Shown: positions 9,213 to 55,036 of the stretch, one piece after another
How positions within the stretch are numbered: position 1 is the stretch's first letter
Layout of the letters: the number at the start of each line of letters is the position of its first letter
Source of the DNA: Clostridium thermosuccinogenes
GTDB taxonomy: Bacteria > Bacillota > Clostridia > Acetivibrionales > DSM-5807
NCBI RefSeq assembly: GCF_002896855.1
Contig: NZ_CP021850.1
Location: 831,665 to 895,664 of the forward strand
DNA length: 64,000 bases
Direction: 5' to 3'
Notes under the pieces: generated by a model
What the model was told of the DNA's origin: nothing
Database searches by the model: none
Seen by the model: the letters and a program-made list of their open reading frames with translations, nothing else
Made by a program: the position numbers and the translations under genes

Positions 9213-11015
9213 GTTGATAAAGGCCAGCTAACTAAAGTCAAGAGTTTAATAAATATTTTAAAAATTGTTGAAAACTCCTGACAGAGAAAAAAGCATTGCA
9301 ACATGACACCCTGGTAAAGCAAACATAAAATAGATAGTCTAATAAAGAAATTTGATCTTTGAAAACTAAACATTAAGTATAGTATTTATTAAACGATTGT
9401 GTACTTCGCAACAAGCATTTGCGTATGTTCTTGTGGAGCACGTAGCTCATAGGGCTTTTTGTCCCTAAGTACAACAAAGATAATACAAACAAGCTTACAT
9501 ATAATAGCTCCCTAAGCTACTTTTTTATGCTTACTCTAGCATTTTTGCGATAGACTCCAGTAGCACAGGGTTTGAAAGCTGTATTATTCCGAATGGTTCG
9601 ATTATTAGCAGAGCTACTGTGAAAAGTACCTTGCGAAGAAGCCTTGAGACTATCCTGGACATTTTATTAGGTGTCCCTGTAAGCTCTCTGGACTGTATTA
9701 CATATGGATCAATACCGAAACAAGCAACCAGCTTACCTGGCTTTAAAAACGCAGAAAAGTGCCAACCTTAGCCAGAATGGTAGTAACAGAGAGAAGTCTA
9801 ATACTTGGAATGCTTTGTAAGAGTTCAAGCATCAATGCCATCATAGGTAAATCCTTTGCAATATTTTCATAAACTAATACACGAATGTCCTTTAGAACTC
9901 TCTCAAGGTTTTAAGCATAGAAGTATACACACCAAGTATGGTAATATTTGATTAATACTAAATGCTTAGAGAAGTGATCTCTTTAGCCTTGGTGATTGGA
10001 AGTTCATACTTACTAATTGCCTATTATGGGACTTTTCATGAATCAGTGTAATCAGCCTGTTCCTGTTAGCCTTAAGATATGAACAGGTGTAGGGCGTTCT
10101 TCAAAGATAGCTATAGCTACCTTTGAGAATATATTAGAGAATTTATCTTTCTTAAAGTTGAGAATGAATTGGTCAACTATGCCTGTAAATCTTTTTTGTA
10201 TGCAGTAAGCTCATCATTAAGCTTATAGTAGTGGAGGCATGGGCAAATATCCTAATCGAGGATTTTTGTAGATTTAAGCTCCTGAAATCTGTATAGCATG
10301 GCAATTCTCCGGGCATCAACTTTGTCAATTTTCACTTTCCTTATTCCAATATTTTTGATAAAATCAGCTTAGATGGGGTTTATGAAAGAGACCCCAAATC
10401 AAAACTTACAGAGTAAATGGAAAAGGATTTTGTGATAGTGCTCGGTGGATTCCATAACCATGAAATACTTTGAAGCAAAGTCTTTTTTCGTTTTTTTAGT
10501 AATTCAACGATACTTTCAACACCAGTATTGGATCATTATGGATCTTTATGCGGGCAATCACTTCATTGGATGGAGAAAGAATTACCATCTTCCTGGCGAT
10601 TTTACTTACATCGATTCCTGCAATAGGTCTGAAATTCATTAAGGGCCTCCTTTACAAGATTAATGGACTTAAAAGCCTTCATTCTCCCTATGTAAGCAAA
10701 CAGCCTTGCAAGTGACACGAAGAACCAGCAAATCATGTAGATTTACTGGAATGAATAAATATTCTTTCACATGGGGTAATTGGCCAGATAAAGTTCGTCC
10801 CAGGAGATGATACACACACCATTAAAGTACGGATGATATTATACATGATTGTCAAGGTTCAAGCTAACTGATGCTAGCATAATGGCTAAGGTGTAAAGCT
10901 GGATAATGTGCTTAATGTTTATATATGGTATTAAATATGAATTGTTATGTTAATTATAATTTTTATGGGTCGAACAGTGACTTAGGTTACTGATATAATA
11001 CAATATTAATTATAC
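9213..11015 (-). mobile_element. Degenerate IS110-family element (copy B)
   Basis: The whole stretch aligns by eye to the intact IS110 element at 50742-52616. Shared landmarks are CCAGCTAACTAAAGTCAAGAG near the left end, TTTGAAAACTAAACAT ahead of the transposase stop, and the long upstream end with CCCAGGAG, TTATACATGATTGTCAA, GCATAATGGCTAA and ACAATATTAATTATACAA. Copy B has lost parts of the transposase and part of a hairpin in the non-coding end. The exact ends are ambiguous because only two copies are visible; they are placed where similarity fades. Confidence 0.75.
9389..10639 (-). pseudogene. Degenerate IS110 transposase
   Basis: The region is collinear with the transposase at 50921-52210, from the ATG equivalent at 10639 (ATGAATTTCAGACC retained) to the TAA equivalent at 9389. 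It is broken by many stops and indels and is shorter by about 40 nt. The Shine-Dalgarno sequence in front is still present on the minus strand. Recognisable pieces are the counterparts of the N-terminal DEDD part and of the C-terminal Tnp20 part (SSRYCF-like region near 9690-9780). Confidence 0.75.
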
Positions 11016-11030
11016 AAGGAGGTGAATAAG

Positions 11031-11526: not shown

Positions 11527-11636
11527 TGTTAATGCTACTCTAAAATTGTACCACATGCCGGCAAAAAATAGGCCACCTTAATCAAATTTCCTGTATGATT
11601 TTGTTGAGCAGGCACTATCGTATAGGAGGAAAGGAT

Positions 11637-12358
11637 ATGATTAAGATGACACAATTAGAGGATATCAGAAAAATGTACTTTATGGAAGACCTAAGTATCA
11701 GGGAAATAAGCCGAAGGACAGGAATACACAGGGACACAATATCAAAATATATTTCGCTGGAAGAATCAAAACCGCCTAATACAGGTTGACAAAGGAGAGA
11801 AATCATCCGGTATTGGAGCCATATATACCACTGATTAAGCATATAATAGAAGACAATAAAACCAGGCACCGTAAGCAAACGCCATACAGGAACCAAAATA
11901 TTTGAAATACTCAAAAAAGAGGGTTTCACAGGCGGATACAATACTGTAATGGACTACCTGAGAAAGGAATACAAAAAACCAAGAGAGGCTTTTCTACCGC
12001 TGGAATTTGAATTGGGAGCCTATGCAGAAGTAGACTGGACAGAAGCATATTTCTATCTTAAGGGCAAGGAGACCAAAGCACATGCATTCGTAATGAAGTT
12101 AAGAGGCTCAGGTGTTTTCTATGTAAGAGCATATCCTTTTGGGAAACAGGAGGCTTTCTTTGATGGGCATATCAAATGCTTTGAGTTTATGAACAGAGTA
12201 CCGTACAAGATAGCATACGATAATCTGAAGACAGCAGTAAAGAAAATACTCGTAGGAAGCAACAGAGAAGAACAAGAGCAATTCATCGCCTTACGTACGC
12301 ATTACCTTTTTGAACCACTTTTTGTCGTCCGGCAAAAGGGAATAATAAAGGTGGTGTA
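11637..12358 (+). pseudogene. IstA transposase remnant
   Basis: The reading starts MIKMTQLEDIRKMYFMEDLS and continues with an HTH (IREISRRTGIHRDTISKYIS). It breaks near 11790 by stop and frameshift and resumes at about 11949 with MDYLRKEYKKPREAF, LGAYAEVDWTEAYF (a catalytic Asp of the DDE core) and IAYDNLKTAVKKIL (second Asp). It ends near 12358 inside the catalytic core. The third catalytic residue is missing. IstA normally cuts and joins the IS21 ends; this copy cannot. Confidence 0.75.
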
Positions 12359-12359
12359 G

Positions 12360-12883: not shown

Positions 12884-13600
12884 TTCTATAATTACACCTG
12901 ACCTGCCCAATTACGATTGTAAAACATTTCATTTTTCAATCTTCCAAAAAATCTTTCACAAGCTGAATTATCTGGTGAACATCCTTTCTTTGACATGGAT
13001 CTGCGTAGGCCTGCATTTTCCATTCTAGATATCCAGCCCGGCCATCGATAATGGCAATCTTGATCTGTATGGATGATTGGATGTTCATTATTATTAAGGG
13101 TACTTATTGCATCATCCAACATACTGTTGACTAGTAGAGCATCCGGTGTTGTGCTTATTCTCCATGCAGGAAGCATTCCGTTAAAACAATCTACTATAGG
13201 TGACAGATATACCTTTCCGGCTGGAATCTGGTATTCATAAGTCCAGCAGCTCCTTTCAGGATATACTTTTTCCGCCACGTATAGATACTGGCTCTGCTAT
13301 ATCCAATTTCTTCTGATACTAATTGTACATTCACGCCCATTTCAAAGCAACGCTTAATTGCTTCAAGCTTAAGTTCAAGAGGTGGATGTCTAGGATGTTC
13401 AGAGTATTGTTATATTTTTTTCTGGGAGCTTTTCTGCTTGGAAGGGAATTACGCTCGGCAATCCAATCTTACAGTCTTTTTCGAGTTGGATATCCCAATT
13501 TCTGAATAACCTTACTTACAGATTTACATTGGTCATAAAGTTGCAAAGCCTTTTTTCGCTGATTTTTGAATATACGTATTGTTACTCCTTCCCGAATCTC
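12884..13600 (-). pseudogene. IS3 OrfA and OrfB, N-terminal and central parts
   Basis: The minus strand encodes, from about 13600 downward, an OrfA-like HTH protein (KKALQLYDQCKSVSKVIQKL, then GYPTRKRL, a stop, DWIAERNSLP). With further frameshifts it runs into OrfB: CWTYEYQIPAGKVYLSPIVD containing a catalytic Asp, HTDQDCHYRW with the second Asp, and SACERFFGRLKNEMFYNRNW with the catalytic Glu. The gene is then cut by the IS21 insertion. Several stops show that it is dead. Confidence 0.8.
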
Positions 13601-50731: not shown

Positions 50732-50920
50732 CGTTTATTATTATAAAAAGACCAGCTAATTAAAGTCAAGAGCTTTTTTTGAAAAATAAAAGAATTTTTC
50801 AAAAAACACATGAGCTAAAAAAGGCATGACAACAAGACCACCCAGGTGAAGTAGACATAAAATAGCTGGTCCAAAATAGTAAGTTGCTCTTTGAAAACTA
50901 AACATCAAGTAACAGTACTA

Positions 50921-52210
50921 TTAAGCTGCTGTATGCTTTGCTGCAAGATTCTTCGCATGTTCCTGAGGGCTACGTAGCTGATAAGGCTTTCTATCCCTAA
51001 GAACAGCAAAAATATAATTAACAAGCTTACGCATAACAGCTCCTAAGGCCACTTTTTTAGGCTTGTTCTGGCATTTGTTTTTGTAATATTCCATCAGTAC
51101 AGGGTTGCAAGCTGTTTTGTCACGCTTAGTGCGGATATTAGCAAGAGCAATTGTGAAAAGTACCCTGCGAAGCAGCCTTGACCCCCTTTTTGACATCTTG
51201 TTTTGTGTGCCGGTAAACTCTCCGGACTGCATTACAGAGGGGTCAATGCCGAAATAAGCAACTAGCTTGCCTGGCTTTGAAAAAGCTGAAAAGTCGCCAA
51301 TTTCAGCCAGAATGGTAACAGCAGAGATAAGTCCTATACCTGGAATGCTTTGTAGAAGCTCGAGAGTCAGTGCCAGCATGGGTATGTCCTTTGCCATATC
51401 TTCAGCAATCAATGAACGAATGGCTTTGAGGACTTTCTCAAGGTTTTCCTCCAAGGTTTTAATCATAGAGATATACACCCCAAGCATGGCAATATTTGAA
51501 GAGTTATTAATGCTCAAAGGTGCAAATTCTCTGGCCTTGGAGACCAAAAGCTCATACTTTGCAGTTGACCACTTAAGGCTTCTGCGGGAATTCTTTTGTA
51601 TCAGTGCAATCAACTTGTTTCTGTTGGCTTTAAGAATATGCACAGGCGTAGGATATTTTTCTAATACTGCGAGAGCAGCCTTTGAAAAGATGTTAGGGAA
51701 TACATCCTTGAAGTTTAGCATGAGTTGGTCAACAATACCTGTAAGCCTGTTTTTGTAGGCAGTAAGTTCGTCAGAGAGCTTGTAGTACTGTCGGCAAAGG
51801 CTTCGCAGACATTCAATATCTTCATCTGGGATATTAGTAGTTTTAAGCTCCTGAAATCTGTATAGCAGGGCAATTTTCCGGGCATCAACTTTATCATTTT
51901 TCACTTTCCTGATTCCAATATTTTTGATAGAATCAGTTTGGATGGGGTTTATGATGGAAACCTCAAATCCAGCTTTACAAAGTGAATGGAAAAGGATTTT
52001 GTGATAGTGCCCGGTGGATTCCATGACGACGAAAGGCCTAGAATCAAAGTCCTTTTCCGTTTTTTTCAGTAATTTAACGGCTCTTTCAACGTCAGAACTG
52101 GAATCATGGCGGATCTTCATGCGGGCAATTACTTCATTGGATGGAGAAAGAATTGCCATCTCACTAAAGAATTTACCTACATCGATTCCTGCCATAGGTC
52201 TGAAATTCAT
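50921..52210 (-). CDS. IS110-family transposase / bridge-type recombinase
   Basis: The 429-aa protein has the N-terminal DEDD/RuvC-like domain (MAGIDVGKFFSEMAILSP with the first Asp, VVMESTGHYHKILF with Glu, VKNDKVDARKIALLYRFQEL with two Asp). A long coiled-coil region follows. The C-terminal Tnp20 domain (LLQSIPGIGLISAVTILAEI, GDFSAFSKPGKLVAYFGIDP) contains the catalytic Ser in VMQSGEF. IS110 recombinases insert and excise their element using a non-coding bridge RNA from the element itself, as shown for IS621. ATG 52210 has AAAGGAGGC in front; the frame is intact, so it could be active. Confidence 0.93.
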   Translation of the reverse strand: MNFRPMAGIDVGKFFSEMAILSPSNEVIARMKIRHDSSSDVERAVKLLKKTEKDFDSRPFVVMESTGHYHKILFHSLCKAGFEVSIINPIQTDSIKNIGIRKVKNDKVDARKIALLYRFQELKTTNIPDEDIECLRSLCRQYYKLSDELTAYKNRLTGIVDQLMLNFKDVFPNIFSKAALAVLEKYPTPVHILKANRNKLIALIQKNSRRSLKWSTAKYELLVSKAREFAPLSINNSSNIAMLGVYISMIKTLEENLEKVLKAIRSLIAEDMAKDIPMLALTLELLQSIPGIGLISAVTILAEIGDFSAFSKPGKLVAYFGIDPSVMQSGEFTGTQNKMSKRGSRLLRRVLFTIALANIRTKRDKTACNPVLMEYYKNKCQNKPKKVALGAVMRKLVNYIFAVLRDRKPYQLRSPQEHAKNLAAKHTAA

Positions 52211-52426
52211 AAAAAATGCCTCCTTTACAAGATGAATGGACTTAAAAGTCTCCATTCCTTCCCATGTAAGCAAACAACCTTGCATGTGACACGAGGAACC
52301 AGCTTTAAGCTGGCCTCAACCAGCCAAATCATGTAGACTTACCGGAATGGATAAATACTCTTTTTTACGGGTAATCGGCCCGCTAAGGTCCGTCCCAGGA
52401 GGTGAAACACACACCTTCCAAGTCCG
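52211..52426 (-). ncRNA. Candidate IS110 bridge RNA
   Basis: Upstream of the transposase the minus strand has TATAAT at 52438-52433, so a transcript would start near 52426. It would contain a stem-loop GGAAGGTG...CACCTCC (plus-strand 52398-52419), a second CCAGCTTTAAGCTGG hairpin (52299-52313) and a third strong stem just before the ribosome site (52234-52257). The same region is conserved in copy B (10640-10860), including the -10 box, while copy B lacks the second hairpin. Guide loops complementary to target and donor were not worked out. Confidence 0.55.
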
Positions 52427-52624
52427 GAAAATATTATACATGATTGTCAAAGTTCAGGCCAACAGATGCTGGCATAATGGCTAAGATGTGAAGCCGGATG
52501 ATGTGCTTGATGTTTGGAAAAGTATGAAGCTTAAAATGTTATGTTAACTATAAAAATTGATGGGTCAAACAGTGGCTTTGGTCACTGATTTAATACAATA
52601 TTAATTGTACAAGGGAGTGAGAGA

Positions 52625-55036
52625 ATGCAAAAGTACCTTTTGAACGGCATATGGAAAATGAGCGATGCTGGCGGAAAAGTGAGGGAAGGAACCATACCGG
52701 GTTCCGTATATTCCTTTCTCTTGAACAGTGGAGAGATGGAAGATCCCTATTACAGGGATAATGAGTTGAAAGCCCTGAAGCTGATGGATGATGATTACAC
52801 GTTCTACAGAAGCTTTTATGCTCCACGGGAAATATTGCAATGCCCGCAGGTTCTGCTGCACTGCGATGGCCTCGATACCATATGTGAAATTTTCTTAAAC
52901 GGAAGCTTTATTGGAAACGCATTCAATATGCATCGCATATGGGAATTTGATATAACATCCTTCCTGAAGGAGGGAGAGAATGAAATCCGGATCGTATTTC
53001 GTTCACCGGTGAAGTATATCAAAGAGATGCAGGCAAAGGACTACATAGGAGGAACCCTTGATGCCATGGATGGATTCCCTCATATACGCAAAGCCCACTG
53101 CATGTTTGGCTGGGACTGGGGCCCAAGATTGCCTGATGCAGGAATATGGAGGGATATTTATCTTGTAGGTGTTGATTCATCAAGGATTGAGGATGTGCAT
53201 ATAAGGCAGCACCATGAGGACGGCCATGTGGCGTTTACTGTGGATGTAAAGCAGTCCCGGGCAGCAGAAGTACGCATTGCTGTCATCGGTCCCGATGGGT
53301 CTGTGACCATGCTGCAAAATGGAGTTAAAACGGAGATAGAAAATCCAAAGCTATGGTGGCCGCATGGATACGGAGGGCAGCCTCTTTACACGGTAAAGGT
53401 GGAGCTTTTGGAAAACGGAATTGTGGTAGATGAGGAAACTAAGCGGATAGGACTGCGCACTCTGACTATATCCAGAAAGAAGGATCAATGGGGTGAGAGC
53501 TTTGCCCACTGTGTAAACGGAATTGAGATTTTTGCCATGGGAGCTGATTATATCCCGGAGGATAATATATTATCTAGGATAACTCCGGAGAGGACCCGCC
53601 GGTTGCTGGAGCAGTGCATTGCCGCCAATTTTAACTGCATCCGGGTATGGGGAGGCGGTTATTATCCCGATGACTTCTTCTTTGATATTTGTGACGAGCT
53701 TGGATTGATAGTCTGGCAGGATTTCATGTTCGCTTGTGCCAATTATCATCTGACTCTGGATTTCGAGAAAAATATCCGGGCGGAGTTTATCGATAATGTT
53801 CGCAGGATACGGCATCATGCGTCTTTAGGCTTATGGTGCGGAAACAATGAGATGGAAATGTTCCAGGCCATAGGCGTGTATAACGGAACGCATAAAACCC
53901 GTGCGGATTATATCCGCATGTTTGAGCACATAATTCCGGAAGTGCTGCGGGAGTATGATCCGGATACCTTCTACTGGCCTGCGTCCCCCAGCTCTGGCGG
54001 AAGCTTTGACAATCCCAACGATCCTGACCGCGGAGATGTGCATTATTGGGATGTCTGGCATGGGAACAAACCTTTTGACGAATACCGCAAATATTATTTC
54101 CGCTATGTTTCGGAGTTTGGTTTTCAGTCCTTCCCGTCCCTTAAGACGGTGGAAAGCTTTACCCTACCCGAGGACAGAAATATTTTCTCCCGGGTGATGG
54201 AAATGCATCAGAGGAATGCAGGAGCCAACGGAAAGATTATGAACTATCTGTCCCAGACCTTCCTCTATCCCAATGATTTTGACACACTGCTGTATGCTTC
54301 CCAGTTGCTCCAGGCAGAAGCCATTCGCTATGGTGTGGAACACTGGCGCCGCAACCGTGGGCGTTGTATGGGAGCCATCTACTGGCAGCTGAATGATATC
54401 TGGCCTGTGGCATCCTGGTCATCCATTGATTATTATGGCAGGTGGAAGGCGCTGCATTATTACGCAAAACGCTTTTTTGCCCCCGTCATGATATCCTGCT
54501 GCGAAGTGGGAGAGACCACCGACCGTGCGGCGGTATGCATGCAGCCATCGCCGATTGAGACTTCTGCTCATCTCTGTGTTGTCAATGAAACCATGAGCGA
54601 TGTATCCGGTACCGTGCGGTGGTACCTGAGGGATTCCCGTGCCGCCATACTGGAATCCGGCGAGTTCGATATTACGGTGCCTGCCCTTTCCAGCCGGTGG
54701 TGTGAAAAGAAGGATTTTAACTGTACGGACTTCCTGAACAATTATATAAGCTTTGAATTTATTTCGAATGGAGTTTGCCTTTCCTCAGGAACAGCTCTTT
54801 TCACGGCGCCTAAGCATTACCGCTTTGTGGATCCTCACTTGACTTATGAGATTCATGACGGAAAGATAACTGTCCATGCCGATGCCTATGCAAAAAGTGT
54901 GGAGATTTCTTCCCCTGACTGTGATTTGTTGCTCAGTGACAACTATTTTGATATGAATGGGGGAAGCGTCACCGTAGATATCCTTGAGGGCAATCCTAAG
55001 ACGCTGAAGCTCCGTTCCGTATATGATATAAGATAA
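52625..55036 (+). CDS. Beta-mannosidase (GH2)
   Basis: The 803-aa protein matches GH2 beta-mannosidases. It has an N-terminal jelly-roll (MQKYLLNGIWKMSDAGGKVR, EGTIPGSVYSFLLNSGEMED with YRDNEL), CMFGWDWGPRLPDAGIWRDI, immunoglobulin-like domains and the TIM barrel. The barrel carries the acid/base Glu in GLWCGNNEMEMF and the nucleophile Glu in YVSEFGFQSFPSLKTVESF. No signal peptide is present, so it hydrolyses imported manno-oligosaccharides in the cytoplasm. GGGAG is located 9 nt before ATG 52625, directly next to the IS110 end. This means that the IS has replaced its native leader; expression may depend on readthrough or an IS promoter. Confidence 0.93.
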   Translation: MQKYLLNGIWKMSDAGGKVREGTIPGSVYSFLLNSGEMEDPYYRDNELKALKLMDDDYTFYRSFYAPREILQCPQVLLHCDGLDTICEIFLNGSFIGNAFNMHRIWEFDITSFLKEGENEIRIVFRSPVKYIKEMQAKDYIGGTLDAMDGFPHIRKAHCMFGWDWGPRLPDAGIWRDIYLVGVDSSRIEDVHIRQHHEDGHVAFTVDVKQSRAAEVRIAVIGPDGSVTMLQNGVKTEIENPKLWWPHGYGGQPLYTVKVELLENGIVVDEETKRIGLRTLTISRKKDQWGESFAHCVNGIEIFAMGADYIPEDNILSRITPERTRRLLEQCIAANFNCIRVWGGGYYPDDFFFDICDELGLIVWQDFMFACANYHLTLDFEKNIRAEFIDNVRRIRHHASLGLWCGNNEMEMFQAIGVYNGTHKTRADYIRMFEHIIPEVLREYDPDTFYWPASPSSGGSFDNPNDPDRGDVHYWDVWHGNKPFDEYRKYYFRYVSEFGFQSFPSLKTVESFTLPEDRNIFSRVMEMHQRNAGANGKIMNYLSQTFLYPNDFDTLLYASQLLQAEAIRYGVEHWRRNRGRCMGAIYWQLNDIWPVASWSSIDYYGRWKALHYYAKRFFAPVMISCCEVGETTDRAAVCMQPSPIETSAHLCVVNETMSDVSGTVRWYLRDSRAAILESGEFDITVPALSSRWCEKKDFNCTDFLNNYISFEFISNGVCLSSGTALFTAPKHYRFVDPHLTYEIHDGKITVHADAYAKSVEISSPDCDLLLSDNYFDMNGGSVTVDILEGNPKTLKLRSVYDIR

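What the first reader, a model, noticed from the sequence alone, without database searches (positions are those of the whole stretch)
52211..52616. Conserved 400-nt non-coding end of an IS110 element: a likely bridge RNA, with a second copy for comparison
The sequence between the transposase start and the element edge is conserved in two divergent copies (52211-52616 and 10640-11015), although it encodes no protein. It contains a conserved TATAAT, several hairpins, and one hairpin present in copy A but lost in copy B. IS110 recombinases use a bridge RNA from this end (as for IS621) to choose target and donor; this would be a clostridial member with its own guide loops. The transposase keeps DEDD and QSG residues, so it may be active.
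Basis: partly seen in the sequence, partly recalled or inferred. Interest (0 to 1): 0.72.

Follow-up and report, generated by a model that had tools for sequence, protein, structure and literature searches.

The report
IS110 element guided to Shine-Dalgarno sites
A bacterial jumping gene carries a guide RNA that, judged from many natural insertions, steers it into the ribosome-binding site just in front of genes, where it leaves that site readable; the kind of RNA is already known, but this clostridial family and its choice of target are a clear new example.

Summary
The observation and the interpretation both hold. 52211-52613 (minus strand) is the left end of a 1.86-kb IS110-group insertion sequence. 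The genome holds ten identical copies, one 89% copy and the decayed 76% copy at 9221-11018. The non-coding left end encodes a predicted bridge RNA of the IS621 type: a covarying target-binding loop, then a donor-binding loop. A covariance model finds it upstream of the transposase gene in relatives with 38-46% identical proteins. Over 61 insertions in 18 lineages the right target guide follows the flanking DNA (257/427 matches; shuffled 199±6; 0/20000), and so does the left guide (p 0.00035). The donor guide and the left end change together: CTTG/CAAG, CTAG/CTAG, CTGG/CCAG. Empty sites in relatives show insertion at a single CT core without target duplication. In several lineages the loop's target is identical over 11-13 nt to the 16S rRNA 3' tail. 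The left end abuts gene starts (45/65, against 2/65 on the right side), and the SD is kept. IS900 has a similar published target motif. Verdict: a new, well-supported member of a known kind. No transcript or activity data exist.

The parts
50749..52613 (-). Whole IS110-group element, copy A, from core CT (left end, 52612-52613) to core CT (right end, 50749-50750)
   Evidence: Ten identical copies with different flanks end here; empty sites of relatives' copies show a single CT core
50921..52210 (-). Transposase/recombinase CDS, 429 aa, DEDD plus QSG serine motif
   Evidence: Pfam DEDD_Tnp_IS110 and Transposase_20; NCBIfam NF033542 'IS110 family RNA-guided transposase', 262.5 bits against cut-off 140; aligns with IS621 8wt6
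52236..52438 (-). Predicted bridge RNA region (covariance model R1 match)
   Evidence: 243 bits, E 8.3e-47; 44 pairs, 94.4% paired, 9 pairs with changes on both sides, 0/500 shuffles
52433..52438 (-). Conserved TATAAT, possible -10 box of an internal promoter for the RNA; start site unknown
   Evidence: invariant in 17 aligned relatives
52415..52431 (-). 5' stem-loop (weakly supported; partly overlaps where transcription would start from TATAAT)
52352..52413 (-). Target-binding loop: outer stem 52407-52413 with 52352-52358
   Evidence: helix 2, 3 pairs with changes on both sides
52397..52407 (-). Left target guide TTTCACCTC-CT
   Evidence: matches left flanks of the lineage; lineage-level permutation p 0.00035
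52369..52396 (-). Inner hairpin of the target-binding loop, GGGACGG...CCG...CCC
   Evidence: helices 3 and 4, compensatory changes
52360..52368 (-). Right target guide GTAAAAAAG (reads CT-TTTTTAC on the target)
   Evidence: 257/427 guide-target matches against 199±6 shuffled, 0/20000
52251..52351 (-). Donor-binding loop with stem 52338-52351 / 52251-52270
   Evidence: helices 5 and 6
52317..52328 (-). Left donor guide TTTGGCTGGTTG, matches right end TTAGCTGGT-CT
   Evidence: kept in distant relatives, but nearly invariant and so not tested by covariation
52293..52317 (-). Hairpin between the donor guides, deleted together with one GCTGGTT repeat in copy B
   Evidence: alignment; helix 7
52279..52287 (-). 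Right donor guide ACATGCAAG, pairs with left end CTTGTA
   Evidence: three-way compensatory change with the left end: CTTG/CAAG, CTAG/CTAG, CTGG/CCAG
52604..52609 (-). -10 (TACAAT) of the promoter formed only when right and left ends are joined in the circle
   Evidence: TTGAC[T/A]-17 nt-TA[C/T][A/G]AT in 21 of 21 junctions built on paper
50764..50769 (-). -35 (TTGACT) of the same junction promoter, in the right end
52611..52627 (+). Kept Shine-Dalgarno and start codon of the neighbouring GH2-type gene (AAGGGAGTGAGAGAATG; first A from the element, AG is the core); CDS 52625-55036
9221..11018 (-). Copy B, decayed relative of the same element (76% identical), also inserted at an SD (TTCACCTC-CT)
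10663..10843 (-). Bridge RNA region of copy B
   Evidence: model R1, 142 bits

Best explanation
This is an IS110-group insertion sequence whose left end encodes a bridge RNA. The recombinase excises the element as a circle. Joining right end to left end creates a strong promoter (TTGACT-17-TACAAT) that can drive the RNA and the recombinase gene. The RNA's donor-binding loop pairs with the joined ends (AGCTGGT-CT-TGTACA). Its target-binding loop pairs with (T)CACCTC-CT-TTTTT (right half TTCTT, TTCATA, TTCACA or TAATTA in other lineages), which is the complement of a Shine-Dalgarno sequence. Recombination at the CT core then inserts the element in front of a gene, with its left end towards the start codon, without target duplication and with the SD kept (AAGGAGG at typical sites). 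Shown here by sequence: element edges, target, empty sites, guide-target and guide-donor concordance, RNA structure, junction promoter motif. Inferred from IS621 and ISEc21: transcription, binding by the recombinase, circle formation, strand exchange.
For: Ten identical copies at different sites. Guide-target tracking over 61 insertions in 18 lineages. Donor guide compensatory changes. Covarying structure and model hits upstream of the transposase in distant relatives. Empty sites. Gene-start adjacency 45/65 against 2/65. Junction promoter motif 21/21. IS110 family RNA-guided transposase model. The same layout is published for IS621 (PMC11208160), and an upstream non-coding region with guide RNA for ISEc21 (PMC11187229).
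Against: No transcript, RNP or transposition data. Left donor guide and right end are nearly invariant, so that pairing has no covariation test, and the guide's core bases (TG) do not match CT. Target positions +6 and +7 do not follow the guide. Some relatives with one known site (L028, L034, L088) match their guides poorly. The TATAAT lies so close to the 5' stem-loop that a start site 7 nt downstream would cut into it.
Confidence: 0.93

Rival explanations
1. The conserved region is only a leader of the transposase mRNA (regulatory hairpins, hidden start site), and the protein alone chooses the target.
For: The region lies directly upstream of the transposase gene and ends in its SD (AAAGGAGG, 52208-52226). 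Hairpins also exist upstream of TATAAT.
Against: Elements with about 90% identical transposases prefer different right targets as their guides differ: G222 GTAAGAAAG to TTCT, G366 GTATGAAAG to TTCATA, G000 GTAAAAAAG to TTTTT. Donor guide and element end change together.
Confidence: 0.04
2. Conservation reflects only recent common descent or copying between copies, not a functional RNA; target resemblance is chance in AT-rich SD-containing DNA.
For: Mean column identity in the near alignment is 86%, and several helices hardly vary.
Against: Compensatory changes beyond shuffles and slid controls; lineage-level permutation of guides; model hits at E 6e-18 to 8e-5 in relatives with 38-46% identical proteins.
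Confidence: 0.02
3. The element targets gene starts because the recombinase or RNA recognises ribosomes, transcription or the folded SD, rather than linear DNA pairing.
For: Left ends abut gene starts, and the guide resembles the 16S rRNA tail.
Against: About a third of insertions have no ORF of 60 aa or more at the SD-like site; the right half of the target varies with the guide; the known family mechanism is DNA pairing (PMC11208160).
Confidence: 0.03

Closest known systems
IS621 and its bridge RNA (IS110 group; PMC11208160, PMC11208158)
   Same: Upstream (left-end) non-coding RNA with 5' stem-loop, target loop, donor loop; guides left-then-right; CT core; junction promoter across joined ends; recombinase homologous
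   Different: Left end of about 400 nt against 191 bp in IS621, with about 175 nt between the left edge and the RNA block; extra conserved TATAAT just before the RNA; larger protein (429 against 328 aa); target is the SD complement
IS900 of Mycobacterium avium subsp. paratuberculosis (IS110 family)
   Same: Published target motif CATGNNNNNNTCTCCTT (PMC8141618), i.e. SD plus start codon read on the other strand; insertions mostly outside coding sequence
   Different: Different host and sequence; in the paper read here the motif was not linked to a guide RNA; relation to this clade not tested
ISEc21 and its seekRNA (PMC11187229)
   Same: IS110-type element with upstream non-coding RNA carrying matches to both target strands; natural redirection in a relative
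   Different: Target is a site inside IS3-family transposase genes, not the SD
ISCro4 recombinase (PDB 9t56)
   Same: Homologous recombinase
   Different: Only the protein was compared here

Membership tests
IS110-group insertion sequence with bridge RNA | DEDD RuvC-like domain plus C-terminal Tnp domain with conserved serine | tested here: met
IS110-group insertion sequence with bridge RNA | Long non-coding region upstream of the transposase gene (downstream in IS1111) | tested here: met
   403 nt upstream, about 170 nt downstream of the CDS
IS110-group insertion sequence with bridge RNA | Structured RNA with a target loop and a donor loop | tested here: met
   covariation; distant relatives
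IS110-group insertion sequence with bridge RNA | Target loop complementary to both halves of the target around a core | tested here: met
IS110-group insertion sequence with bridge RNA | Donor loop complementary to joined right and left ends | tested here: met
   right donor guide by compensatory change; left donor guide by sequence match only
IS110-group insertion sequence with bridge RNA | Insertion without target duplication beyond the core dinucleotide | tested here: met
   empty sites of two G366 insertions in relatives G242, G201 and G136; none found for copy A itself
IS110-group insertion sequence with bridge RNA | Promoter reconstituted at the circle junction | tested here: met
   motif present in 21/21 junctions built on paper; activity not tested
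IS110-group insertion sequence with bridge RNA | RNA is expressed and binds the recombinase | not testable with these tools
   needs RNA-seq and pull-down
IS1111 group | Non-coding RNA downstream of the transposase gene | tested here: not met
   RNA block lies upstream of the gene
IS1111 group | Subterminal inverted repeats | not tested
   not examined systematically
Known Rfam RNA family | Match to any Rfam 15 model | tested here: not met
   no match up to E = 1

The most novel reading that the evidence does not exclude
A clade of IS110 elements in Clostridia has its left target guide locked to the anti-Shine-Dalgarno sequence, identical over up to 10 nt to the 16S rRNA 3' tail, while the right guide drifts. 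Such elements carry a near-universal, gene-sparing address: in front of genes, with the SD kept. They can enter almost any SD-using genome without reprogramming, and must avoid or be purged from the 16S genes themselves, whose ends match the guide.
Probability: 0.7. Interest if true: 0.6.

Novelty: new member of a known kind. Interest (0 to 1): 0.48.

Why it matters
It gives a clostridial bridge-RNA family with natural guide variants, each with known targets and in part high copy number, so programming rules can be read from nature and tested by guide swaps. It links the SD and gene-start preference of some IS110 elements (as in the IS900 motif) to a guide RNA that resembles the ribosome's own anti-SD tail, and shows how an element can insert in front of genes without destroying their translation signal. 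It could also supply bridge recombinases for Gram-positive anaerobes.

Tried and rejected
Rfam search of the region: nothing up to E = 1. Empty site for copy A in five genomes: none found; the flanks of G366 copies worked instead. First take on the left donor guide (AAAGCTGGTTCC, the second GCTGGT repeat) rejected, because L025 and more distant relatives keep only the first repeat while the second belongs to a hairpin. The hairpin lost in copy B is not a guide change but a deletion in a decaying copy. L025 (Pseudobacteroides) seems retargeted to a palindromic site: right guide GTTTCGAAG against CT-TCGAAG fits, left guide fits poorly, one copy only, so it was left out of the statistics. The family-level genome search was uninformative (one genome only). 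Outward promoter activity of the left end onto the neighbouring gene was looked at by eye; no convincing -35 box was seen and it was not pursued. Rival readings (mRNA leader only, descent only, ribosome recognition) are in the rival list.

Full report
Observation. The finding covers the left end of an IS110-group element on the minus strand. Ten 100% identical copies of the element, one 89% copy and one 76% copy (copy B of the window) lie in the 4.73-Mb genome. Comparing flanks places the edges at a CT core: left end CT-TGTACAATT at 52613 and right end AGCTGGT-CT at 50749-50750. The transposase (50921-52210, 429 aa) matches Pfam DEDD_Tnp_IS110 and Transposase_20, NCBIfam 'IS110 family RNA-guided transposase' at 262.5 bits against a cut-off of 140, and the solved IS621 and ISCro4 recombinases. 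Copy B is broken by many stops and frameshifts. Identity over ten copies points to recent movement (inference).

Relatives. The same element was found in multiple copies in other clostridial genomes: G222 with 15 copies, G366 with 8, G348, G278, G082, Petroclostridium and others. This gave 61 distinct insertions in 18 lineages for statistics.

RNA structure. Seventeen left ends were aligned from the conserved TATAAT to near the start codon. A structure with 5' stem-loop, target loop (outer stem, inner hairpin), donor loop and its inner hairpin has 44 pairs, 94.4% of cells paired, and 9 pairs with changes on both sides against 3.5±1.3 in shuffles. Sliding the partners by 1-3 columns drops pairing to 37-50%. 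The structure was partly fitted by eye to this alignment, so the slide control favours it; the shuffle control and the distant hits are the stronger evidence. The model built from it finds only the two copies in the window, and finds the RNA directly upstream of the transposase gene in relatives with 38-46% identical proteins (E 6e-18 to 8e-5), more weakly further out. No Rfam family matches.

Target guides. The left guide precedes the inner hairpin, the right guide follows it, as in IS621 (PMC11208160). Guides differ between lineages and the flanks follow: GTAAAAAAG with CT-TTTTT (own genome), GTAAGAAAG with CT-TTCT (G222, G348, G278), GTATGAAAG with CT-TTCATA (G366), GTGTGAAAG with CT-TTCA (G082), GTAATTAAG with CT-TAAT (Petroclostridium). 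Over positions +1 to +7 there are 257 of 427 matches; shuffling guides among insertions gives 199±6 and never reaches 257 in 20000 trials, and shuffling among lineages gives 185±20, also never. Positions +6 and +7 carry no signal. For the left half, 280 of 420 against 255±10, p 0.00035; G348/G278 (guide TCACTC-CT) show A at -4 in 5 of 7 sites, where others show mostly C. More distant relatives fit too by eye: guide TCCCC-CT with flank TCCCC-CT in L039 and CACCCC-CT in L083, and ATCACCT-CT with TTCACCT-CT in L084.

Donor guides. The left end reads CTTG, CTAG or CTGG in different relatives and the right donor guide reads CAAG, CTAG or CCAG to match, wherever both could be read. L083 and L086, which have similar RNAs, differ in both at once, so the change seems to have occurred more than once. 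The left donor guide (TTTGGCTGGTTG) matches the right end AGCTGGT, but both are nearly invariant, so this pairing rests on sequence match only.

Empty sites. For two G366 insertions the uninterrupted site was found in relatives: TGTACCTC-CT-TTCATAT in G242, G201 and G136 for L129, and TTCACTTC-CT-TAAATT in G136 for L133. Each has one CT where the insertion has two, with no other duplication or loss at the core. The right flank is therefore host DNA, not element DNA. No empty site was found for copy A itself.

What the target is. ACCTCCTTT is the complement of AAAGGAGGT, the Shine-Dalgarno sequence. At 45 of 65 insertions a start codon 3-16 nt from the core opens an ORF of 60 codons or more on the left-end side, against 2 of 65 on the right-end side and 16% of shifted positions. 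Copy A sits before the GH2-type gene at 52625. The core and left end together supply CTT, so the gene keeps AAG followed by its own GAGG-like sequence. The target named by both guides is identical over 11-13 nt to the 3' end of the 16S rRNA genes of these genomes in several lineages (GGCTGGATCACCTCCTTTCTA), yet none of the 61 insertions lies there. Purging by selection or masking is possible; neither was tested.

Promoters. Joining right and left ends gives TTGAC[T/A], 17 nt, TA[C/T][A/G]AT in 21 of 21 relatives, as described for IS621 and ISEc21 circles (PMC11208160, PMC11187229). In addition there is a conserved TATAAT just before the RNA block. If it is a promoter, the start would cut into the 5' stem-loop, so its role is not understood. 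A small hairpin with a compensatory change lies just upstream of it.

Comparison. By every feature that can be tested in sequence this is an IS110-group element with a bridge RNA. SD/gene-start targeting has a precedent: IS900's motif CATGNNNNNNTCTCCTT (PMC8141618), which is start codon plus SD on the opposite strand. In the papers found here that preference was not connected to a guide RNA (searches; open-licence papers only). The novelty is thus modest: a new member with a natural anti-SD address and a rich set of natural guide variants.

Noticed in passing
L163 and L160 (16S 3' ends); The 16S rRNA gene 3' ends of these genomes (4-7 matches in most) match the element's predicted target over 11-13 nt in several lineages, yet no insertion was seen there among 61.
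   Followed up: partly
L025 around 2170-2480 and its right flank: A Pseudobacteroides relative (57% identical protein) has right guide GTTTCGAAG and sits at CT-TCGAAG inside a palindrome-like stretch, not at an SD: a possible natural retargeting.
   Followed up: partly
window 52433-52473: Conserved TATAAT preceded by a hairpin with a compensatory change (GCCAGC-ATCT-GTTGGC, 52458-52473); whether it is an internal promoter, a processing signal or both is unexplained.
   Followed up: partly
L090 and L101 (genome G278): Two copies in one genome share the same right flank but have different left flanks, suggesting recombination between copies or a rearrangement.
   Followed up: no
window 11595-12359 and 12892-13278: Remnants that look like IS21-type and IS3-type transposase genes next to copy B, so copy B seems to lie among other decayed mobile elements (judged by eye).
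   Followed up: no
window 52208-52226: The transposase gene's own SD (AAAGGAGG) is itself a partial match to the element's target; no self-insertion was seen.
   Followed up: no
L069 and L117, leader between left edge and RNA block: Some relatives carry an extra hairpin-like insert of about 35-50 nt in the leader between the left edge and the RNA.
   Followed up: no
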